A stretch of 34,972 nucleotides of DNA from Candidatus Gemmiger avistercoris (GTDB lineage: Bacteria; Bacillota; Clostridia; Oscillospirales; Ruminococcaceae), in assembly GCA_019116705.1 (NCBI GenBank), contig DXBF01000021.1, positions 1-34,972 on the forward strand, read 5' to 3'. The number at the start of each line of letters is the position of its first letter. Position 1 is the first letter of the stretch. The notes under the pieces were generated by a model that saw nothing but the letters and a program-made list of their open reading frames with translations, was not told the origin of the DNA and did no database searches. Positions 5,240 through 28,391 of the stretch are shown here, one piece after another. Position numbers and translations under genes: made by a program.

Positions 5240-6157
5240 CTACGCGATGCGCGCAGCCAGGATGGCGGCGGCCAGGCGCAGGTTGCCGTTGGCGGCCAGG
5301 GTGCGGCGGCACTCGGCCCCGGCGCGCAGGATGACGGCCGCGCGGTCCGGCGTCAGGCCGCCGCAGGCGCGCGCGCCGTAGTCCGGGCGGCGCAGCACCG
5401 CGCTGCACACCTGGTCCAGCTGCCACAGCAGCGCCAGCATGCCTTCCCGGTCCCGCTCGTATTTGGTCAGCAGGGCCAGGGCGCGGTAGGTATCGTTCTG
5501 CGCGGCATAGCCGCAGAGGGTCCTGGCCTGGGCCAGCGCGCTGCGGGCGGCGGCGTCCGTGAAGGCCCGCAGCGCGTTGCCGATATGCCCCGCATAGAGG
5601 AAGGCCAGTTCGGCGGCCTGGGCTTCGGGCAGGCCGCGGCTGCGCAGCAGGGCGGTACACGCGGCGGCGGGCACCGGCGCCACGGTATAGGCCGCGCAGC
5701 GGCTGCGGATGGTGGGCAGCACGCCGGCGGCGCTGGAGGCCGTGAGCAGGAAGAGCACGCCTGCGGGCGGTTCCTCAATGATCTTGAGCATGGCGTTGGC
5801 GGAAGAACCGTTGAGGTCCTGCGCGCCGTAGATGAAAAGCACCCGGCCCGCCGCGTCGGTGGAGAGGGCGGAATGCTGGATGGCCTCCCGCATTTCGCGC
5901 ACCCGCTTGACAGGGATCTGGCCGGAAGCGCCTTCCCCCCGCAGGGTCAGGCACTCGGTGTCCTCCCCCTGGAGGACGGCCTCGGCATGGGGGCCGCCCT
6001 GGGGATAGAGGTAGTCCGCCGCCAGACAGCGGGCCGCAAAGCCCGCGCCGCAGCCGGGTTCCCCGACCAGCAGCACCGCATGCGGCAGCCGGCCGGTGCG
6101 CAGCGCGGCGCCCAGTTCGGCTTTGAGGGCCTCATTCCCGGCCAGACGGTCCAGCAT
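5240..6157 (-). CDS. holB: DNA polymerase III subunit delta'
   Basis: A 305-residue clamp-loader subunit delta'. It has the AAA+ layout: an N-terminal segment LPHAVLLVGEPGCGAGFAA where the P-loop lacks the catalytic lysine (delta' is normally ATPase-dead), QDLNGSSANAMLKIIEEPP (the highly conserved delta'/gamma box) and IRSRCA with the SRC motif. The zinc-binding cysteines common in gamma/DnaX are not visible. The start ATG at 6157 overlaps the darA stop as TGATG, indicating translational coupling. The context darA-holB-ricT supports the assignment. Confidence 0.92.
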   Translation of the reverse strand: MLDRLAGNEALKAELGAALRTGRLPHAVLLVGEPGCGAGFAARCLAADYLYPQGGPHAEAVLQGEDTECLTLRGEGASGQIPVKRVREMREAIQHSALSTDAAGRVLFIYGAQDLNGSSANAMLKIIEEPPAGVLFLLTASSAAGVLPTIRSRCAAYTVAPVPAAACTALLRSRGLPEAQAAELAFLYAGHIGNALRAFTDAAARSALAQARTLCGYAAQNDTYRALALLTKYERDREGMLALLWQLDQVCSAVLRRPDYGARACGGLTPDRAAVILRAGAECRRTLAANGNLRLAAAILAARIA

Positions 6158-6480
6158 CACAGCTTTTCAAAGCGCTCCACGTTGGTGACCATGACGGTGG
6201 CGCCGCCCACGGTGACTTCCATGGGCATGGCGCTCTCGAACCCGAAGCCCAGGGTGGCGGTGCCGGGCACGATCTCGGTGCGCTGCTTGCAGAACTGGGA
6301 GATGATGCCGATGCATGCATCCACCCGCTCGTCCTCGGTGCAGATGAGCAGCGTCATGTTGCCCGCCATCAGGAAGCCGCCGGTGGTGGCCAGCCGGGTG
6401 ACGTAGAACTTGTTTTTCACCAGTTCGTTGCATACGACGCGGGAATCTTCTTTATTGACGATGGCAGTGATCAGTTTCAT
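6157..6480 (-). CDS. darA: Cyclic-di-AMP receptor, PII-like (DarA/PstA)
   Basis: A 107-residue PII-like signal protein of the DarA/PstA family, which forms trimers that bind cyclic di-AMP. The start MKLITAIVNKEDS, the loop TRLATTGGFLMAGNMTLL and the C-terminal GGATVMVTNVERFEKL are characteristic. Its cellular target is unknown in most species. The ATG at 6480 has AAAGGAGG eight bases upstream; a longer reading to 6696 would run through a repeat element and is rejected. In many Firmicutes tmk precedes this gene. Here the upstream neighbour is a rhomboid-like gene plus a structured repeat ending 64 bp before the start. Confidence 0.93.
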   Translation of the reverse strand: MKLITAIVNKEDSRVVCNELVKNKFYVTRLATTGGFLMAGNMTLLICTEDERVDACIGIISQFCKQRTEIVPGTATLGFGFESAMPMEVTVGGATVMVTNVERFEKL

Positions 6481-6544
6481 AGAGAATTCCTCCTTTGATA
6501 CTGCAAAATTACAGACCATATAGTATAGGGGCGGAATTAAAACC

Positions 6545-6724
6545 GTCTCCATCGGCGGACATGTGCCGACGATGGAGACACCGCCAGGGAAATTTAGTCC
6601 AAAATTGTGTGCGAGGCCCTGCGGGCCGAGTGCGCGATTTTGGGCTAAATTTTGTCGAAGGGGATTCCAAAGAGGGGAAACAGGAGCCTTAGGCAATTGC
6701 CGTAGGCGACTGTTGCCCCTTTTG
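6545..6724 (-). repeat. Structured interspersed repeat, copy A
   Basis: A 180-bp element with a second copy at 26620-26911 on the opposite strand. Read on the minus strand it contains three stem-loops. The first is AAAAGGGG-AACAG...CTGTT-CCCC around an inner GCCT...AGGC stem. The second is a long A/T-G/C hairpin (6637-6652 with 6590-6605, 15 of 16 pairs) capped by GGCCC/GGGCC. The third is a terminal 14-bp hairpin (6566-6579 with 6545-6558, one mismatch, loop holding ACATGT) followed by GGTTTT. Several stems differ from copy B by compensating changes. It begins within a few bases of the rhomboid-like gene stop and precedes darA. I do not recognise the family. Confidence 0.85.
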
Positions 6725-6729
6725 ATGGT

Positions 6730-7377
6730 TCAGCGGCGGTTGCGGTTTTCCCAGTCGCGGCGGCGCTTGTAGCCCGTCACGGTGTCCCTGCACCAGTCAA
6801 AGACTTCCCGCCCGAAGAAGGCCAGGAAGCCCGCCAGACCCAGGATCATGCTCAGGCGGGTCATATTGCTGGCCGTGATGAAATTCCATGCCCAGACAGC
6901 CAGCTCGAACCAGCCCAGGTACTTCATCTTGAAGGGGATGATGCCGAACAGCAGCACGCCCTGGTCGGGCCACAGCCAGGTGTAGGCGAACAGCATGCTG
7001 AGGAAGATGGCGCTGGCCGTGGCCCCGCCGGTGAGGAAGCAGCTGACCCAGGCCCCCAGCATGCCAAGGGCCAGGAAAAGGGTCATGCGGAAGTCGCCCC
7101 AGACGCGGGTGAGGGCGTTGCCGATCCAGAAATAGAACACCAGATTGAGAATGCCCAGGAAACCGCCCAGCCAGATGGGCTGGAACAGGAAGGTGACGAG
7201 CCGCCAGATCTGGCCGTGAAGCACCTCGTACCGGGTAAGGCCCAGGTACAGGCTGACGCGCCAGTCCACGATGAGGATGAACAGCCCTACCGCCAGCTGG
7301 CCGATCATCAGGGCGTTGACAAGGTTGGGGATGCCGTAGCGGCCCCAGCGGCGTTCGAGTTTATCGATCCAATCCAT
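6730..7377 (-). CDS. Rhomboid/Derlin-like membrane protein, probably non-catalytic
   Basis: A 215-residue multi-pass membrane protein with about six hydrophobic segments. RYEVLHGQIWRLVTFLF near the N-terminal third and the segment layout resemble rhomboid-like proteins. The catalytic GxSG motif is not seen where it would be expected (GGATASAIF there instead), nor a matching active-site histidine, so it looks like a Derlin/iRhom-type pseudoprotease. The ATG at 7377 has GGAGGA ten bases upstream and gives MDWIDKLERRWGRYGIPN. It has its own promoter and is probably co-transcribed with the repeat element and darA-holB-ricT. Its role is unknown. Confidence 0.78.
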   Translation of the reverse strand: MDWIDKLERRWGRYGIPNLVNALMIGQLAVGLFILIVDWRVSLYLGLTRYEVLHGQIWRLVTFLFQPIWLGGFLGILNLVFYFWIGNALTRVWGDFRMTLFLALGMLGAWVSCFLTGGATASAIFLSMLFAYTWLWPDQGVLLFGIIPFKMKYLGWFELAVWAWNFITASNMTRLSMILGLAGFLAFFGREVFDWCRDTVTGYKRRRDWENRNRR

Positions 7378-7418
7378 GGGAGTGGTCCTCCGAATTTTTG
7401 TAAGGGGTATACGAGTCC

Positions 7419-7447
7419 ATTGTAGCATTTTTGGACGGCTTGTGCAA
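7419..7447 (-). promoter_or_regulatory. Promoter of the rhomboid-like/darA unit
   Basis: TTGCAC (7442-7447), 17 bp, TACAAT (7419-7424) on the minus strand, with a TG extension. Confidence 0.75.
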
Positions 7448-7474
7448 CCGTTCCCCGTCGAAAGCGGGCGGCCG

Positions 7475-8872
7475 CTATGCCAGCACGGCCAGCGCGCCCG
7501 CGCCGCCCCCGGCGCTGTGGCGCAGCGCCGTGCCCATAGCCTGCAGGTTGGCGGCGGCCTCCGCAAAGGCCGGGGTCACCTGCTCCCCGGGGGCCAGCAG
7601 CGGCACCCCGGGCGGGTAGGCCCAGACGTATTCGGCGGCGGTGCGGCCCACAGCCTGCGCCAGCGGCACGATCTGCCGGGGGCGCAGCAGCGCCGGACCG
7701 ATGGGCAGTTCCAGCGGACCGGGCGGCGGCAGGATAGCCGCGGCGGCAGGCAGACAGGGCGCGGCGGCGTCCCAGGCGGCGAGGGCGCCTGCCAGACGGT
7801 CCAGCGCGCGTTCCGCATCGCAGGGGCTGGTCATGGCCAGCACGTTGGGGCCGCAGACCATCTCCGGCTCAAAGCCTGCGGCGCGCAGGGCGGCCGCCCC
7901 CGCCGGACCGATGCGCAGAAGCAGTTTGCCGTCGTCGTACCCGAAGCAGGCGGCCCGGTCGGGGCTGACCCCCAGCAGCGGGATGTTCCGCCAGCCGCGG
8001 GCCGCGGCATAAAAGCGGTCCAGGCGCGCCCGCCAGGCCGCGAAGGCGGCGGGGCCGCGTTCCGCCAGCCACGCCGTGCAGCCGTCGAGGCTGGCCAGCA
8101 GCGGGTAGCTGGGGGAGCTGGTCTCGAACACGTCCAGTTCCCGCTCCACGGCGGCGGGGTCCGCCAGGGGGCCGTTGAGGTGCATCCAGGCGGTCTGGGT
8201 CAGGCTGGGCAGCGTTTTGTGGGCGCTCTGCACCACCAGGTCCGCCCCGGCCGCCACCGCGCCCCCCTGCCAGCCGCAGGCTTCGGCCAGCGGCAGGTAG
8301 TGCGCGCCGTGGGCCTCGTCCACCAGCAGCGGCACGCCGCGGGCGTGGCAGATGCGGGCGATGGAGCGCAGGTCGCTCTGTACGCCCTCGTAGGTCGGGC
8401 TGGTAAGGATGACGCAGCGCACCGCCGGGTGCGCGTCCAGCGCGGCGGCCACGGCGGCGGGGGCGACGCTGCCGTAGACCCCGAACCCCGGCAGCACCGG
8501 CGGGATCAGGTAGCGGGCCGTAAGGTGGCCCAGTTCCAGCGCATGGTAGACGGCTTTATGGCAGTTGCGGGCCACAAGCACCTCGCTGCCGAAAGGGGCC
8601 AGCGCCCGGATGCCCGCCAGCAGCCCCACGGTACTGCCGCCCACGAGGTACCGGCAGCGGGCCGAGCCGTAGAGGGCCGCCGTGCGCGCCATCGCTGCGG
8701 CCAGGATGCCGCGGGCGTCGTGCAGGTCGTCGGCGCCGTCGATCTCGGTCAGGTCGAAGGCATAGCAGGAAAGACCGGGCGCAGGCGGCACCCGGCGTTT
8801 GTGCCCCGGCATGTGCAGCGGGTACCGCGCCCCGGCCAGCCGTTCGCATTGGTTTTGCAGCAGTGAGGACAT
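7475..8872 (-). CDS. Orn/Lys/Arg decarboxylase family protein (YaaO-like)
   Basis: A 465-residue fold-type I PLP enzyme of the Orn/Lys/Arg decarboxylase family, short form like B. subtilis YaaO. Visible are MPGHK (residues 21-25), GGSTVG (cofactor phosphate region), DEAHGAH (about 185-191) and the Schiff-base lysine in SAHKTLPSLTQ (K219). The C-terminal decarboxylase domain ends with AYPPGVPLLAPGE, the family's substrate-pocket signature. The substrate (Lys, Arg or Orn) cannot be told. The start ATG at 8872 has AAGGAA upstream; a TTG eight codons earlier is less likely. YaaO-like genes precede tmk-darA-holB in many Firmicutes, matching the order here apart from the missing tmk. Confidence 0.88.
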   Translation of the reverse strand: MSSLLQNQCERLAGARYPLHMPGHKRRVPPAPGLSCYAFDLTEIDGADDLHDARGILAAAMARTAALYGSARCRYLVGGSTVGLLAGIRALAPFGSEVLVARNCHKAVYHALELGHLTARYLIPPVLPGFGVYGSVAPAAVAAALDAHPAVRCVILTSPTYEGVQSDLRSIARICHARGVPLLVDEAHGAHYLPLAEACGWQGGAVAAGADLVVQSAHKTLPSLTQTAWMHLNGPLADPAAVERELDVFETSSPSYPLLASLDGCTAWLAERGPAAFAAWRARLDRFYAAARGWRNIPLLGVSPDRAACFGYDDGKLLLRIGPAGAAALRAAGFEPEMVCGPNVLAMTSPCDAERALDRLAGALAAWDAAAPCLPAAAAILPPPGPLELPIGPALLRPRQIVPLAQAVGRTAAEYVWAYPPGVPLLAPGEQVTPAFAEAAANLQAMGTALRHSAGGGAGALAVLA

Positions 8873-26411: not shown

Positions 26412-26558
26412 ATGAAGCACATTCAGACCCTCGAGACCCGCGACATGGCCAAGAGCCTGCGCGACGGCGGCTGCGGCGAGTGCCAGACCTCCTGCCAGAG
26501 CGCCTGCAAGACCAGCTGCGGCATTGCCAACCAGCCCTGCGAGAAAGCGGACAACTGA
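26412..26558 (+). CDS. scfA: SCIFF precursor peptide (ranthipeptide)
   Basis: A 48-residue precursor of the SCIFF family (six cysteines in forty-five residues). The leader MKHIQTLETRDMAKSLRDGG precedes a core with cysteines at 21, 24, 28, 32, 36 and 43, spaced with Ser/Thr residues as expected for sulfur-to-carbon thioether cross-links. SCIFF peptides are near-universal in Clostridia and have been linked to signalling rather than killing. The ATG at 26412 has AAAGGAG upstream. It has its own strong promoter and terminator, and the maturase follows 378 bp later, across a structured repeat, rather than directly. Confidence 0.95.
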   Translation: MKHIQTLETRDMAKSLRDGGCGECQTSCQSACKTSCGIANQPCEKADN

Positions 26559-26581
26559 TTTTTCCACCAACGCTGGCGATC

Positions 26582-26616
26582 GTGCCGGGCGCCTTACGGC
26601 CCCGGCATTTCTTTTG
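26582..26616 (+). terminator. Terminator between scfA and scfB
   Basis: A stem TGCCGGG/CCCGGCA (26583-26589 with 26601-26607) with an inner GCC/GGC, followed by TTTCTTTT. It should let scfA be made in excess over the maturase. Confidence 0.85.
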
Positions 26617-26619
26617 CCT

Positions 26620-26911
26620 CAAAAGGGGCAACAGTCGCGCATGGCTGACGCCTGACGCTCCTGTTTGACGGGTTGCGGTTTCCGCATCCCGCGGCGCGCC
26701 TTGGGGCGGCGCTTGCGTTCTTCGACCGCTGCCCCTGCTCCGCCTTGCTGTATCCGCCGCAGGCGGCGCGCGGCTTCGCAGCCTCTTTGGAATCCCCTTC
26801 GACAAAATTCACCCCAAAACCGCGCACTCGGCGCCTGCGCCTCGCACACAATTTTGGGGTAAATTTCCCTGTATGTGTCCACATCGTCGGCACATGTCCG
26901 CCGATGTGGAC
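26620..26911 (+). repeat. Structured interspersed repeat, copy B
   Basis: The second copy of the element at 6545-6724, on the plus strand. It keeps CAAAAGGGGCAACAGTC at its start, the linker CTCTTTGGAATCCCCTTC, the long hairpin (26805-26819 with 26851-26866) capped by GGCGC/GCGCC, and the terminal 14-bp hairpin (26877-26890 with 26898-26911, loop holding ACATGT) followed by AGATGTTTT. It is about 110 bp longer than copy A because of an extra GC-rich segment (about 26670-26780) replacing the CCCC side of the first stem. It fills the gap between scfA and scfB, ending 25 bp before the scfB start. Confidence 0.85.
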
Positions 26912-26936
26912 AGATGTTTTATTAAAGGAGCTCCCT

Positions 26937-28391
26937 ATGATCCATCAATACAAGCTGGGCGGCTACAACATCGTGCTGGACGTGTTCAGCGGCAGCGTGC
27001 ACGCCGTGGACGAAGTCGCCTACGACGCCATCGCCCTGATCGACGGCGGCAGCACCCGCGCGCAGGCCGCCGCGGCCCTGGCCCAAAAGTACGCGGGCCG
27101 GGACGATGTGACCCCCGCCGACATCGAGGACTGCCTGGACGACATCGACGAACTGACGAAGGAGGGCAAGCTGTTCGCCCCCGACGCTTACGCCGGCCAT
27201 GCCTTCGACTTCAAGAACCGTTCCAATGTGGTCAAGGCCCTGTGCCTGCACGTGGCCCACACCTGCAACCTGAACTGCAGCTACTGCTTTGCGGCCCAGG
27301 GCAAGTTCCACGGCGAGGCCGGGCTGATGAGCTTTGAGACCGGCAAGCAGGCGCTGGATTTCCTGGTGGCGCACTCGGGCACCCGGCGCAACCTGGAGGT
27401 GGACTTCTTCGGCGGCGAACCGCTGATGAACTTCGAGGTCTGCAAGCAGCTGGTGGCCTACGCCCGCAGCATCGAGCAGGCGGCGGGCAAGAATTTCCGC
27501 TTCACGCTGACCACCAACGGCATCGGCATCACCGACGAAGTCATCGAGTGGGCCAACAAGGAATGCCACAACGTGGTGCTCTCGCTGGACGGCCGCAAGG
27601 AGGTCAACGACCGTTTCCGGGTGGATCTGGCGGGCAACGGCAGCTACGACCGCATCGTGCCCAAATTCCAGAAACTGGTCAAGGCCCGGGGCGGCCAGGG
27701 CTACTACATGCGGGGCACCTTCACCCACCACAATGTGGATTTCACCAACGACCTGTTCCACATGGCCGACGACCTGGGCTTCACCGAGCTTTCGATGGAG
27801 CCGGTGGTGGCCCCGCCCGATTCCCCCGAGGCCCTGACCGAAGCCGACCTGCCCAAACTGTTCGACCAGTACGAACTGCTGGCCAACGACATGCTGCGCC
27901 GCCAGAAAGCCGGACGGCCCATCACCTTCTACCACTACATCCTGGACCTGAAACACGGGCCCTGCATCTACAAGCGCATCTCGGGCTGCGGTTCGGGCAC
28001 CGAGTACATGGCCGTGACCCCCTGGGGCGACCTGTACCCCTGCCACCAGTTCGTGGGCGACCCCGACTACAAGCTGGGCAACGTGTGGGACGGCGTGACC
28101 AACACCGCCCTGCGGGACGAGTTCAAGCTGTGCAACGTCTACGCCCGGCCCGACTGCCGGGACTGCTGGGCGCGGCTGTACTGCGCGGGCGGCTGCGCGG
28201 CCAACGCCCTGCACGCCACCGGGGACATCCACGGCACCTACGAGTACGGGTGCAAGATCTTCCGCAAGCGCATGGAGTGCGCGCTGATGATCCAGGTGGC
28301 CCAGCGGCTGGACCCCGAACTGGCCCGCCACGCCGTGCAGTACGAGAGCGACTGCGACGGCTGCGGCGAGACCAGAGAAGGCTGCGAATAA
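26937..28391 (+). CDS. scfB: SCIFF maturase, radical SAM/SPASM thioether synthase
   Basis: A 484-residue radical SAM enzyme that forms thioether bonds in SCIFF. The N-terminal ~95 residues are a RiPP recognition-like domain, followed by the radical SAM site CNLNCSYC (C110, C114, C117), DFFGGEPLMN and TTNGIGI. The C-terminal SPASM/twitch part carries many cysteines (GCGSGTEY, DLYPCHQF, CRDCWARLYCAGGC, then CDGCG) for two auxiliary [4Fe-4S] clusters. The ATG at 26937 has AAAGGAG seven bases upstream; a longer in-frame reading to 26673 only translates the repeat and is rejected. No separate promoter is obvious, so expression may come by readthrough of the scfA terminator or from within the repeat. 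Confidence 0.95.
   Translation: MIHQYKLGGYNIVLDVFSGSVHAVDEVAYDAIALIDGGSTRAQAAAALAQKYAGRDDVTPADIEDCLDDIDELTKEGKLFAPDAYAGHAFDFKNRSNVVKALCLHVAHTCNLNCSYCFAAQGKFHGEAGLMSFETGKQALDFLVAHSGTRRNLEVDFFGGEPLMNFEVCKQLVAYARSIEQAAGKNFRFTLTTNGIGITDEVIEWANKECHNVVLSLDGRKEVNDRFRVDLAGNGSYDRIVPKFQKLVKARGGQGYYMRGTFTHHNVDFTNDLFHMADDLGFTELSMEPVVAPPDSPEALTEADLPKLFDQYELLANDMLRRQKAGRPITFYHYILDLKHGPCIYKRISGCGSGTEYMAVTPWGDLYPCHQFVGDPDYKLGNVWDGVTNTALRDEFKLCNVYARPDCRDCWARLYCAGGCAANALHATGDIHGTYEYGCKIFRKRMECALMIQVAQRLDPELARHAVQYESDCDGCGETREGCE

What the first reader, a model, noticed from the sequence alone, without database searches (positions are those of the whole stretch)
6545..6724. Two-copy structured repeat with compensating base changes, no known family
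The segments 6545-6724 (minus) and 26620-26911 (plus) share an ordered set of conserved blocks and three stem-loops. Terminal stem: copy A pairs GTCTCCATCG with CGATGGAGAC, copy B pairs GTCCACATCG with CGATGTGGAC, so two positions changed on both sides. Long hairpin: a G-C pair in A is C-G in B. Cap: GGCCC/GGGCC in A, GGCGC/GCGCC in B. First hairpin: inner GCCT/AGGC in A, GCG/CGC in B, inside a conserved AACAG/CTGTT stem. Loops and linkers (ACATGT, TTTGGAATCCCCTTC) are fixed. This is the pattern of selection on a folded RNA or DNA, not simple duplication. It is either a structured mobile element (REP/MITE/RNA-guided type) or a regulatory RNA. I do not recognise it.
Basis: seen in the sequence. 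Interest (0 to 1): 0.82.

Follow-up and report, generated by a model that had tools for sequence, protein, structure and literature searches.

The report
Folded mobile repeat at Gemmiger terminators
The two repeats belong to a family of small, non-coding elements, present in many copies in gut bacteria of the genus Gemmiger, whose folded shape is kept while the letters change; some copies have the ends of a known transposon family and lie between two copies of a transcription-stop hairpin, so the family is at least in part a miniature transposon.

Summary
The window genome (genus Gemmiger) has 26 strong copies; 29 of 35 genus genomes and 0 of 26 other relatives have a match. Compensating changes far exceed controls.

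Two forms exist. Form 1 (about 230 bp, 32 of 93 classified copies) has ends matching those of IS1182-family insertion sequences; 17 of 31 testable copies lie between two copies of an intrinsic-terminator hairpin. One orthologous empty site holds a single hairpin (25 nt duplicated). Autonomous IS1182 relatives show the same in 7 of 14 loci. Form 1 is therefore best read as a MITE that targets terminators.

Form 2 (61 of 93, both window copies) lacks the left end. In 41 of 60 it starts 0-20 nt behind a stop codon, in the gene's orientation; copies at apparently orthologous junctions differ largely by compensated changes. I infer descent from form 1 by loss of the left end. Its function is unknown. 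Rfam has no match. Verdict: new variant of a known kind.

The parts
6543..6724 (+). A form-2 copy: no left hairpin, no IS1182-type end found
6545..6579 (+).
   Evidence: R1 positions 3-37; pair counts
6589..6653 (+). Copy A, long stem with the invariant run of U-G pairs
   Evidence: R1 positions 47-111; pair counts
6669..6724 (+).
6730..7566 (-). Upstream gene of copy A; its stop codon (6730-6732) is 5 nt before the core; no NCBIfam match
6157..6480 (-). Gene behind copy A: cyclic di-AMP receptor DarA-like (116.4 bits, below the model's cut-off of 140)
26620..26913 (-). Copy B, whole element including Y; minus is the strand that folds better. Form 2
26877..26911 (-). Copy B, first hairpin of the folded strand
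   Evidence: R1 positions 3-37
26804..26867 (-). Copy B, long stem
   Evidence: R1 positions 47-111
26620..26666 (-). Copy B, inner part of hairpin 1, split from its outer arm by Y
26668..26783 (-). Domain Y nested in copy B
26412..26558 (+). Gene before copy B: six-cysteine ranthipeptide SCIFF (TIGR03973)
26937..28391 (+). Gene behind copy B: SCIFF peptide maturase (TIGR03974)

Best explanation
A family, found in this genus, of non-autonomous mobile elements with a conserved folded core. Shown: form 1 is 224-232 bp from end to end (342-344 with Y), its two ends match those of IS1182-family insertion sequences, and in 17 of 31 testable copies the same hairpin sequence, or part of it, lies on both sides. 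Inferred: an IS1182-family transposase acting in trans joins the element's ends to the two 5' feet of an extruded terminator hairpin and repair duplicates the hairpin. Shown: the core is three hairpins whose pairing is kept by compensated changes, with a wobble bias pointing to the strand that is co-directional with the transposase gene of the autonomous relatives. Inferred: the fold of that strand, as RNA or single-stranded DNA, is under selection. Shown: form 2, including both window copies, lacks the left end, mostly starts 5-9 nt behind a stop codon, and occurs at the same junctions in several species. Inferred: form 2 comes from form 1 by deletion of the left end, the left terminator copy and the spacer, and then stays as a 3'-UTR hairpin element of little or unknown effect.
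For: Shared left and right flanks of 12 nt or more in 18 of 96 copies against mean 0.48, maximum 2 when flanks are exchanged; 17 of these are among the 31 form-1 copies with both flanks, the 18th (L064) has a variant left hairpin. Empty site of L098 in G030 holds one hairpin, overlap 25 nt = whole hairpin. Autonomous IS1182 loci with the same end motif and a hairpin repeated at both ends: 7 of 14 examined; protein of L317 is IS1182 family, E 1.5e-118. End consensus against L320: 16 of 17 and 15 of 16; against four other IS ends 15-16 of 17 and 10-14 of 15-16. G-U against A-C on the folded strand over 94 copies: 23:5, 139:8 (48:8 without the base pair), 417:0, in both forms. Form 2: stop codon 0-20 nt before the core in 41 of 60, against 0 of 31 in form 1; in 7 of 60 the gene's frame runs into the core, as expected if deletions reached the gene end. 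Remnants from deletions in G034/G026.
Against: 14 of 31 form-1 copies with both flanks do not show the duplication; for L074 it covers 20 nt, only the 3' half of the hairpin, and seven other empty-site pairs show no measurable overlap. 7 of 14 autonomous loci show no duplication; several of these have different hairpins at their two ends. IS1182-type transposase (PF13751) is in only 6 of 35 genus genomes and not in this one, and three of those six have no R1 match, so the supplier is not where copies abound. 11 of 32 form-1 copies show no recognisable 5' end. Only 2 of 60 form-2 copies keep the right-end motif, so derivation of form 2 from form 1 lacks intermediates. In the own-genome set the first hairpin has no strand bias (4 to 5).
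Confidence: 0.6

Rival explanations
1. The core is an independent element with its own way of inserting just behind stop codons; form 1 is that core captured between IS1182-type ends.
For: Tight spacing of 5-9 nt behind stop codons in 28 of 60 form-2 copies, absent from form 1; form 2 is the commoner form (61 of 93) and 22 of 26 strong own-genome copies are form 2; empty sites of form 2 such as L255 and L248 show no terminator hairpin.
Against: No enzyme, end motif or target duplication was found for form 2; frames that run into the core (7 of 60) suggest deletion.
Confidence: 0.25
2. The element acts in the host as a regulatory hairpin cassette (attenuator, processing site or antisense RNA) and is kept for that.
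For: Same-orientation position behind stop codons; presence at the same junctions in several species with compensated changes; one promoter-like site, 10 of 12, ahead of copy A on the folded strand.
Against: Patchy: at the darA junction 2 of 30 fetched loci carry the core and one a divergent relative. Flanks beyond about 12 nt are not conserved among copies, so no shared promoter is seen. The better fold is antisense to the host transcript.
Confidence: 0.25
3. Compensated changes come from template switching that perfects palindromes in DNA (quasi-palindrome correction, recalled), or from gene conversion among copies, without selection on the fold.
For: Perfect stems are common around these genes; copies are numerous; 24 of 27 double changes between copies at the same junction are compensated.
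Against: Neither process favours G-U over A-C on one strand, yet the excess is strong; the U-G run is nearly invariant and is not a perfected palindrome.
Confidence: 0.15

Closest known systems
IS1182 family, in particular IS1272 (Wan et al. 2017, PMC5678879; abstract and passages read)
   Same: End motif shared with IS1182-family relatives found here; targets are inverted repeats; [quoted passage not shown]
   Different: IS1272 is autonomous and was seen to replace its target hairpin without duplication; form 1 has no transposase gene and the hairpin is duplicated.
Bacterial MITEs such as QMITE2 (review PMC10969869; passages read)
   Same: Short, non-autonomous, ends of an IS, many copies; QMITE2 too has end-less truncated copies said to resemble REPs.
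   Different: Here the core fold covaries with strand bias, and the duplicated target is a terminator hairpin.
BOX, RUP and SPRITE of pneumococcus (PMC3049150; passages read)
   Same: Modular folded repeats, extra modules present or absent, repeats inserted into one another, mobilisation by an IS proposed from shared ends.
   Different: No sequence relation was tested or seen; other host, ends and target.
REP elements of enterobacteria (recalled)
   Same: Palindromes close behind stop codons in many copies.
   Different: Three-hairpin core and IS1182-type ends in form 1; REP-type transposase was not searched for.

Membership tests
MITE (form 1) | Terminal inverted repeats shared with an autonomous IS | tested here: met
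   End consensus matches IS1182 relatives, best L320 at 16/17 and 15/16; 11 of 32 copies lack a recognisable 5' end
MITE (form 1) | Target-site duplication | tested here: met
   17 of 31 form-1 copies with both flanks; one clear empty site (L098, 25 nt) and one of 20 nt
MITE (form 1) | Small size | tested here: met
   224-232 bp in 18 copies, 342-344 in 3
MITE (form 1) | Transposition in trans by that IS | not testable with these tools
   needs an assay; supplier absent from most genomes with copies
MITE (form 2, the window copies) | Terminal inverted repeats and target duplication | tested here: not met
   no left hairpin by definition; right-end motif in 2 of 60; only L064 of that group shares flanks
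IS1182 family (the autonomous relatives) | IS1182-family transposase | tested here: met
   L317 protein, NF033551, 396.8 bits, cut-off 270; the other loci were found by tblastn with the G011 protein
Rfam RNA family | Match at gathering score | tested here: not met
   window; lax scan of five loci
REP / RAYT | Associated REP-type Y1 transposase | not tested
   no search for the Y1 domain was run
BOX element | boxA, boxB and boxC sequence modules | not tested
   compared by description only

The most novel reading that the evidence does not exclude
The core is a functional structured RNA (or folded single strand) that an IS1182-type MITE carries in the place of the transposase gene and on its sense strand, and that takes part in its own mobility, for example by binding the transposase or helping to choose terminator and stop-codon sites; form 2 would be a second, stop-codon-directed way of inserting.
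Probability: 0.12. Interest if true: 0.85.

Novelty: new variant of a known kind. Interest (0 to 1): 0.55.

Why it matters
It gives natural evidence for an outcome that the IS1272 paper proposes as an alternative pathway: duplication of the whole target stem-loop. It shows a miniature transposon whose fold, more than its sequence, is conserved at fixed places in operons, and a form that sits a few bases behind stop codons. If the folded strand proves to be an active RNA, it would be a structured RNA tied to a DDE-transposase element.

Tried and rejected
Reverse copying of the gene end at insertion (snap-back, target-primed): suspected because some copies have, between stop codon and core, the reverse complement of the gene end. 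Over 61 form-2 copies 15 have a hairpin score of 12 or more, against a dinucleotide-shuffle mean of 2.9 (maximum 8 of 200 rounds) and 2-8 at shifted positions, but most copies have none. Kept as unexplained.

A cDNA, SINE-like origin from the folded strand: considered because that strand ends in CCCCTTTTG; set aside when IS1182-type ends and hairpin duplication appeared. It was not tested on its own.

Transposase supply: PF13751 does not track copy number. The core inside autonomous IS: R1 gives one match, E 0.5, in 25 loci. Phages, plasmids, viral contigs as carriers: no match (one exact pattern). Paper searches that gave nothing on the point: (only the IS1272 paper).

Rows dropped before counts: of 82 R1 hits on named loci 69 were taken, of 24 in G034/G026 14; with 26 own copies that is 109, of which 98 had a usable and distinct left side. 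Five doubtful left sides were left out, six in the stop-codon count. The 66 form-2 copies in the first line still include those six; one search repeats it without them. One search kept 94. Hairpin 1 mean energies are spoilt by empty left sides and are not used. The count of TAA/TGA in hairpin 1 (78 of 98) rests on a loose pattern.

Full report
Observation. The two window copies are present as described. The window is contig C55 of a 1.95 Mb draft genome, 83% complete. The window genome gives 45 blastn hits and 26 covariance-model hits above 100 bits. 29 of 35 genomes of the genus, own included, and 0 of 26 outside it have a match at E<=0.001, under strict filters.

Fold and strand. 17 pairs have changes on both sides; 100 such cells against 27.9 in shuffles and 9-17 with slid partners. 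On 67 distinct sequences outside the training set: 95.7%, 21 pairs, 244 cells against 57.3, and 20-57 with slid partners (alignment fitted to the model). Over 94 copies, cells that are G-U on the complement outnumber those that are A-C: 23 to 5 in the first hairpin, 139 to 8 in the lower long stem (48 to 8 without its base pair), 417 to 0 in the U-G run. Both forms show this in the long stem (16 to 2 and 32 to 6). In the smaller own-genome set the first hairpin shows none (4 to 5). About half of the copies have tandem G-A cells in the apical stem where others have standard pairs. Cells are not independent, since copies are related, and G-T and tandem G-A pairs also form in DNA, so the bias does not by itself say RNA.

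Form 1. 32 of 93 classified copies, four of them in the own genome, have a left hairpin of the type CAGCGTGTCGAG-NNN-CTCGACACGCTG directly before the core. Most have a right-end motif close to TTTTTCGACAGTCTG: mean best match 12.0 of 15 over 31 copies against 8.1 in shuffles. Outside these ends the same hairpin sequence often stands on both sides: 18 of 96 copies share 12 nt or more, against mean 0.48 and maximum 2 when flanks are exchanged; 17 of the 18 are among the 31 form-1 copies with both flanks, and 14 of the 31 do not show it. For L098 the orthologous site in G030 has one hairpin, with its A and T runs, and the overlap is the 25-nt hairpin itself. For L074 the overlap is 20 nt, the 3' half of the hairpin. 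Seven further pairs, for L068 and L019, have one hairpin of diverged sequence by my reading and no measurable overlap.

Autonomous relatives. PF13751 occurs in 6 of 35 genus genomes. Two copies in G011 end in CAGACTGTCGAGAAAC at the foot of a hairpin. Their transposase has relatives in 10 of 100 genomes and 8 viral-collection loci. Of 14 loci examined, L317, L319, L320, L322, L330 and L331 have 22-39 bases repeated directly at both ends, hairpins by my reading, and L327 has the same palindrome at both ends with an internal difference. In the other seven no such repeat was found; L318, L329, L333 and L335 have different hairpins at the two ends by my reading. L317 encodes an IS1182-family transposase. 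MITE end consensuses match L320 at 16 of 17 and 15 of 16, other IS ends less well. In this orientation the folded strand of the core is co-directional with the transposase gene. Wan et al. (PMC5678879, abstract and passages) report that IS1272, of this family, takes inverted repeats as targets and replaces them; [quoted passage not shown] My searches showed no report of this for a MITE, but the library holds only part of the literature.

Form 2. The other 61 copies, both window copies among them, lack the left hairpin. In 41 of 60 a same-strand reading frame ends 0-20 nt before the core, 28 of these at 5-9 nt; in 7 of 60 the frame runs into the core, five of them ending 35 nt inside. Form 1 has 0 of 31 within 0-20 nt; a gene on the other strand ends within 0-20 nt of the far end in 6 of 59. 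Copies at the same junction in several species are counted singly here. Copy B is an exception, 61 nt behind the scfA stop codon. G034 and G026, whose flanks are 96-99% identical, share seven sites and differ at others, with clean empty sites at L265, L248 and L255, remnants at L250 and L263, and unclear cases at L249 and L247. At the darA junction the core is in 2 of 30 fetched loci, one has a divergent relative, one could not be read, and the others lack it within the stretch shown. Over 12 comparisons of copies at the same junction, not all independent and matched by eye, changed pairs were 24 double and compensated, 3 double and not, 15 single and still paired, 12 single and broken. Gene conversion among copies, or independent insertion at the same place, could give part of this.

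Nested parts. Y (116 nt) has 24 hits in the own genome, 17 of them nearly complete; in the 14 that lie beside an R1 hit it has the same orientation relative to the core. G034 lacks it where its near-identical relative G026 has it. Z (79-nt query, 10 hits) sits in hairpin 1 or at the centre of the ACATGT loop, there in both orientations.

Conclusion. Form 1 is well explained as an IS1182-type MITE with terminators as target. How form 2 came to lie behind stop codons, and whether the fold acts as RNA, stay open.

Noticed in passing
26668-26783: Domain Y, a 116-nt G+C-rich repeat nested in copy B; 24 hits in the own genome, also outside the element; inserted at AGGGG stretches of the folded strand.
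   Followed up: partly
L248, L263, L022: Domain Z inserted at the centre of the palindromic loop ACATGT in either orientation, without visible duplication.
   Followed up: partly
L235, L258, L264, L265: A divergent relative of the element with different stems but the same layout and loop; G011, G017 and G028 hold 20-46 R1 matches of low score.
   Followed up: no
L255, L018, L083, L008, L011: Between gene end and core, short perfect hairpins that in some copies enclose the stop codon; enriched over shuffles but in a minority of copies.
   Followed up: partly
6495-6524: Promoter-like site (10 of 12) on the plus strand ahead of copy A's folded strand; a consensus match only.
   Followed up: no
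26412-28391: Copy B separates the SCIFF peptide gene from its maturase gene.
   Followed up: no
L234: The darA junction of G032 carries another family of direct repeats (CCTCCCCTGTGGCAGCGG...) instead.
   Followed up: no
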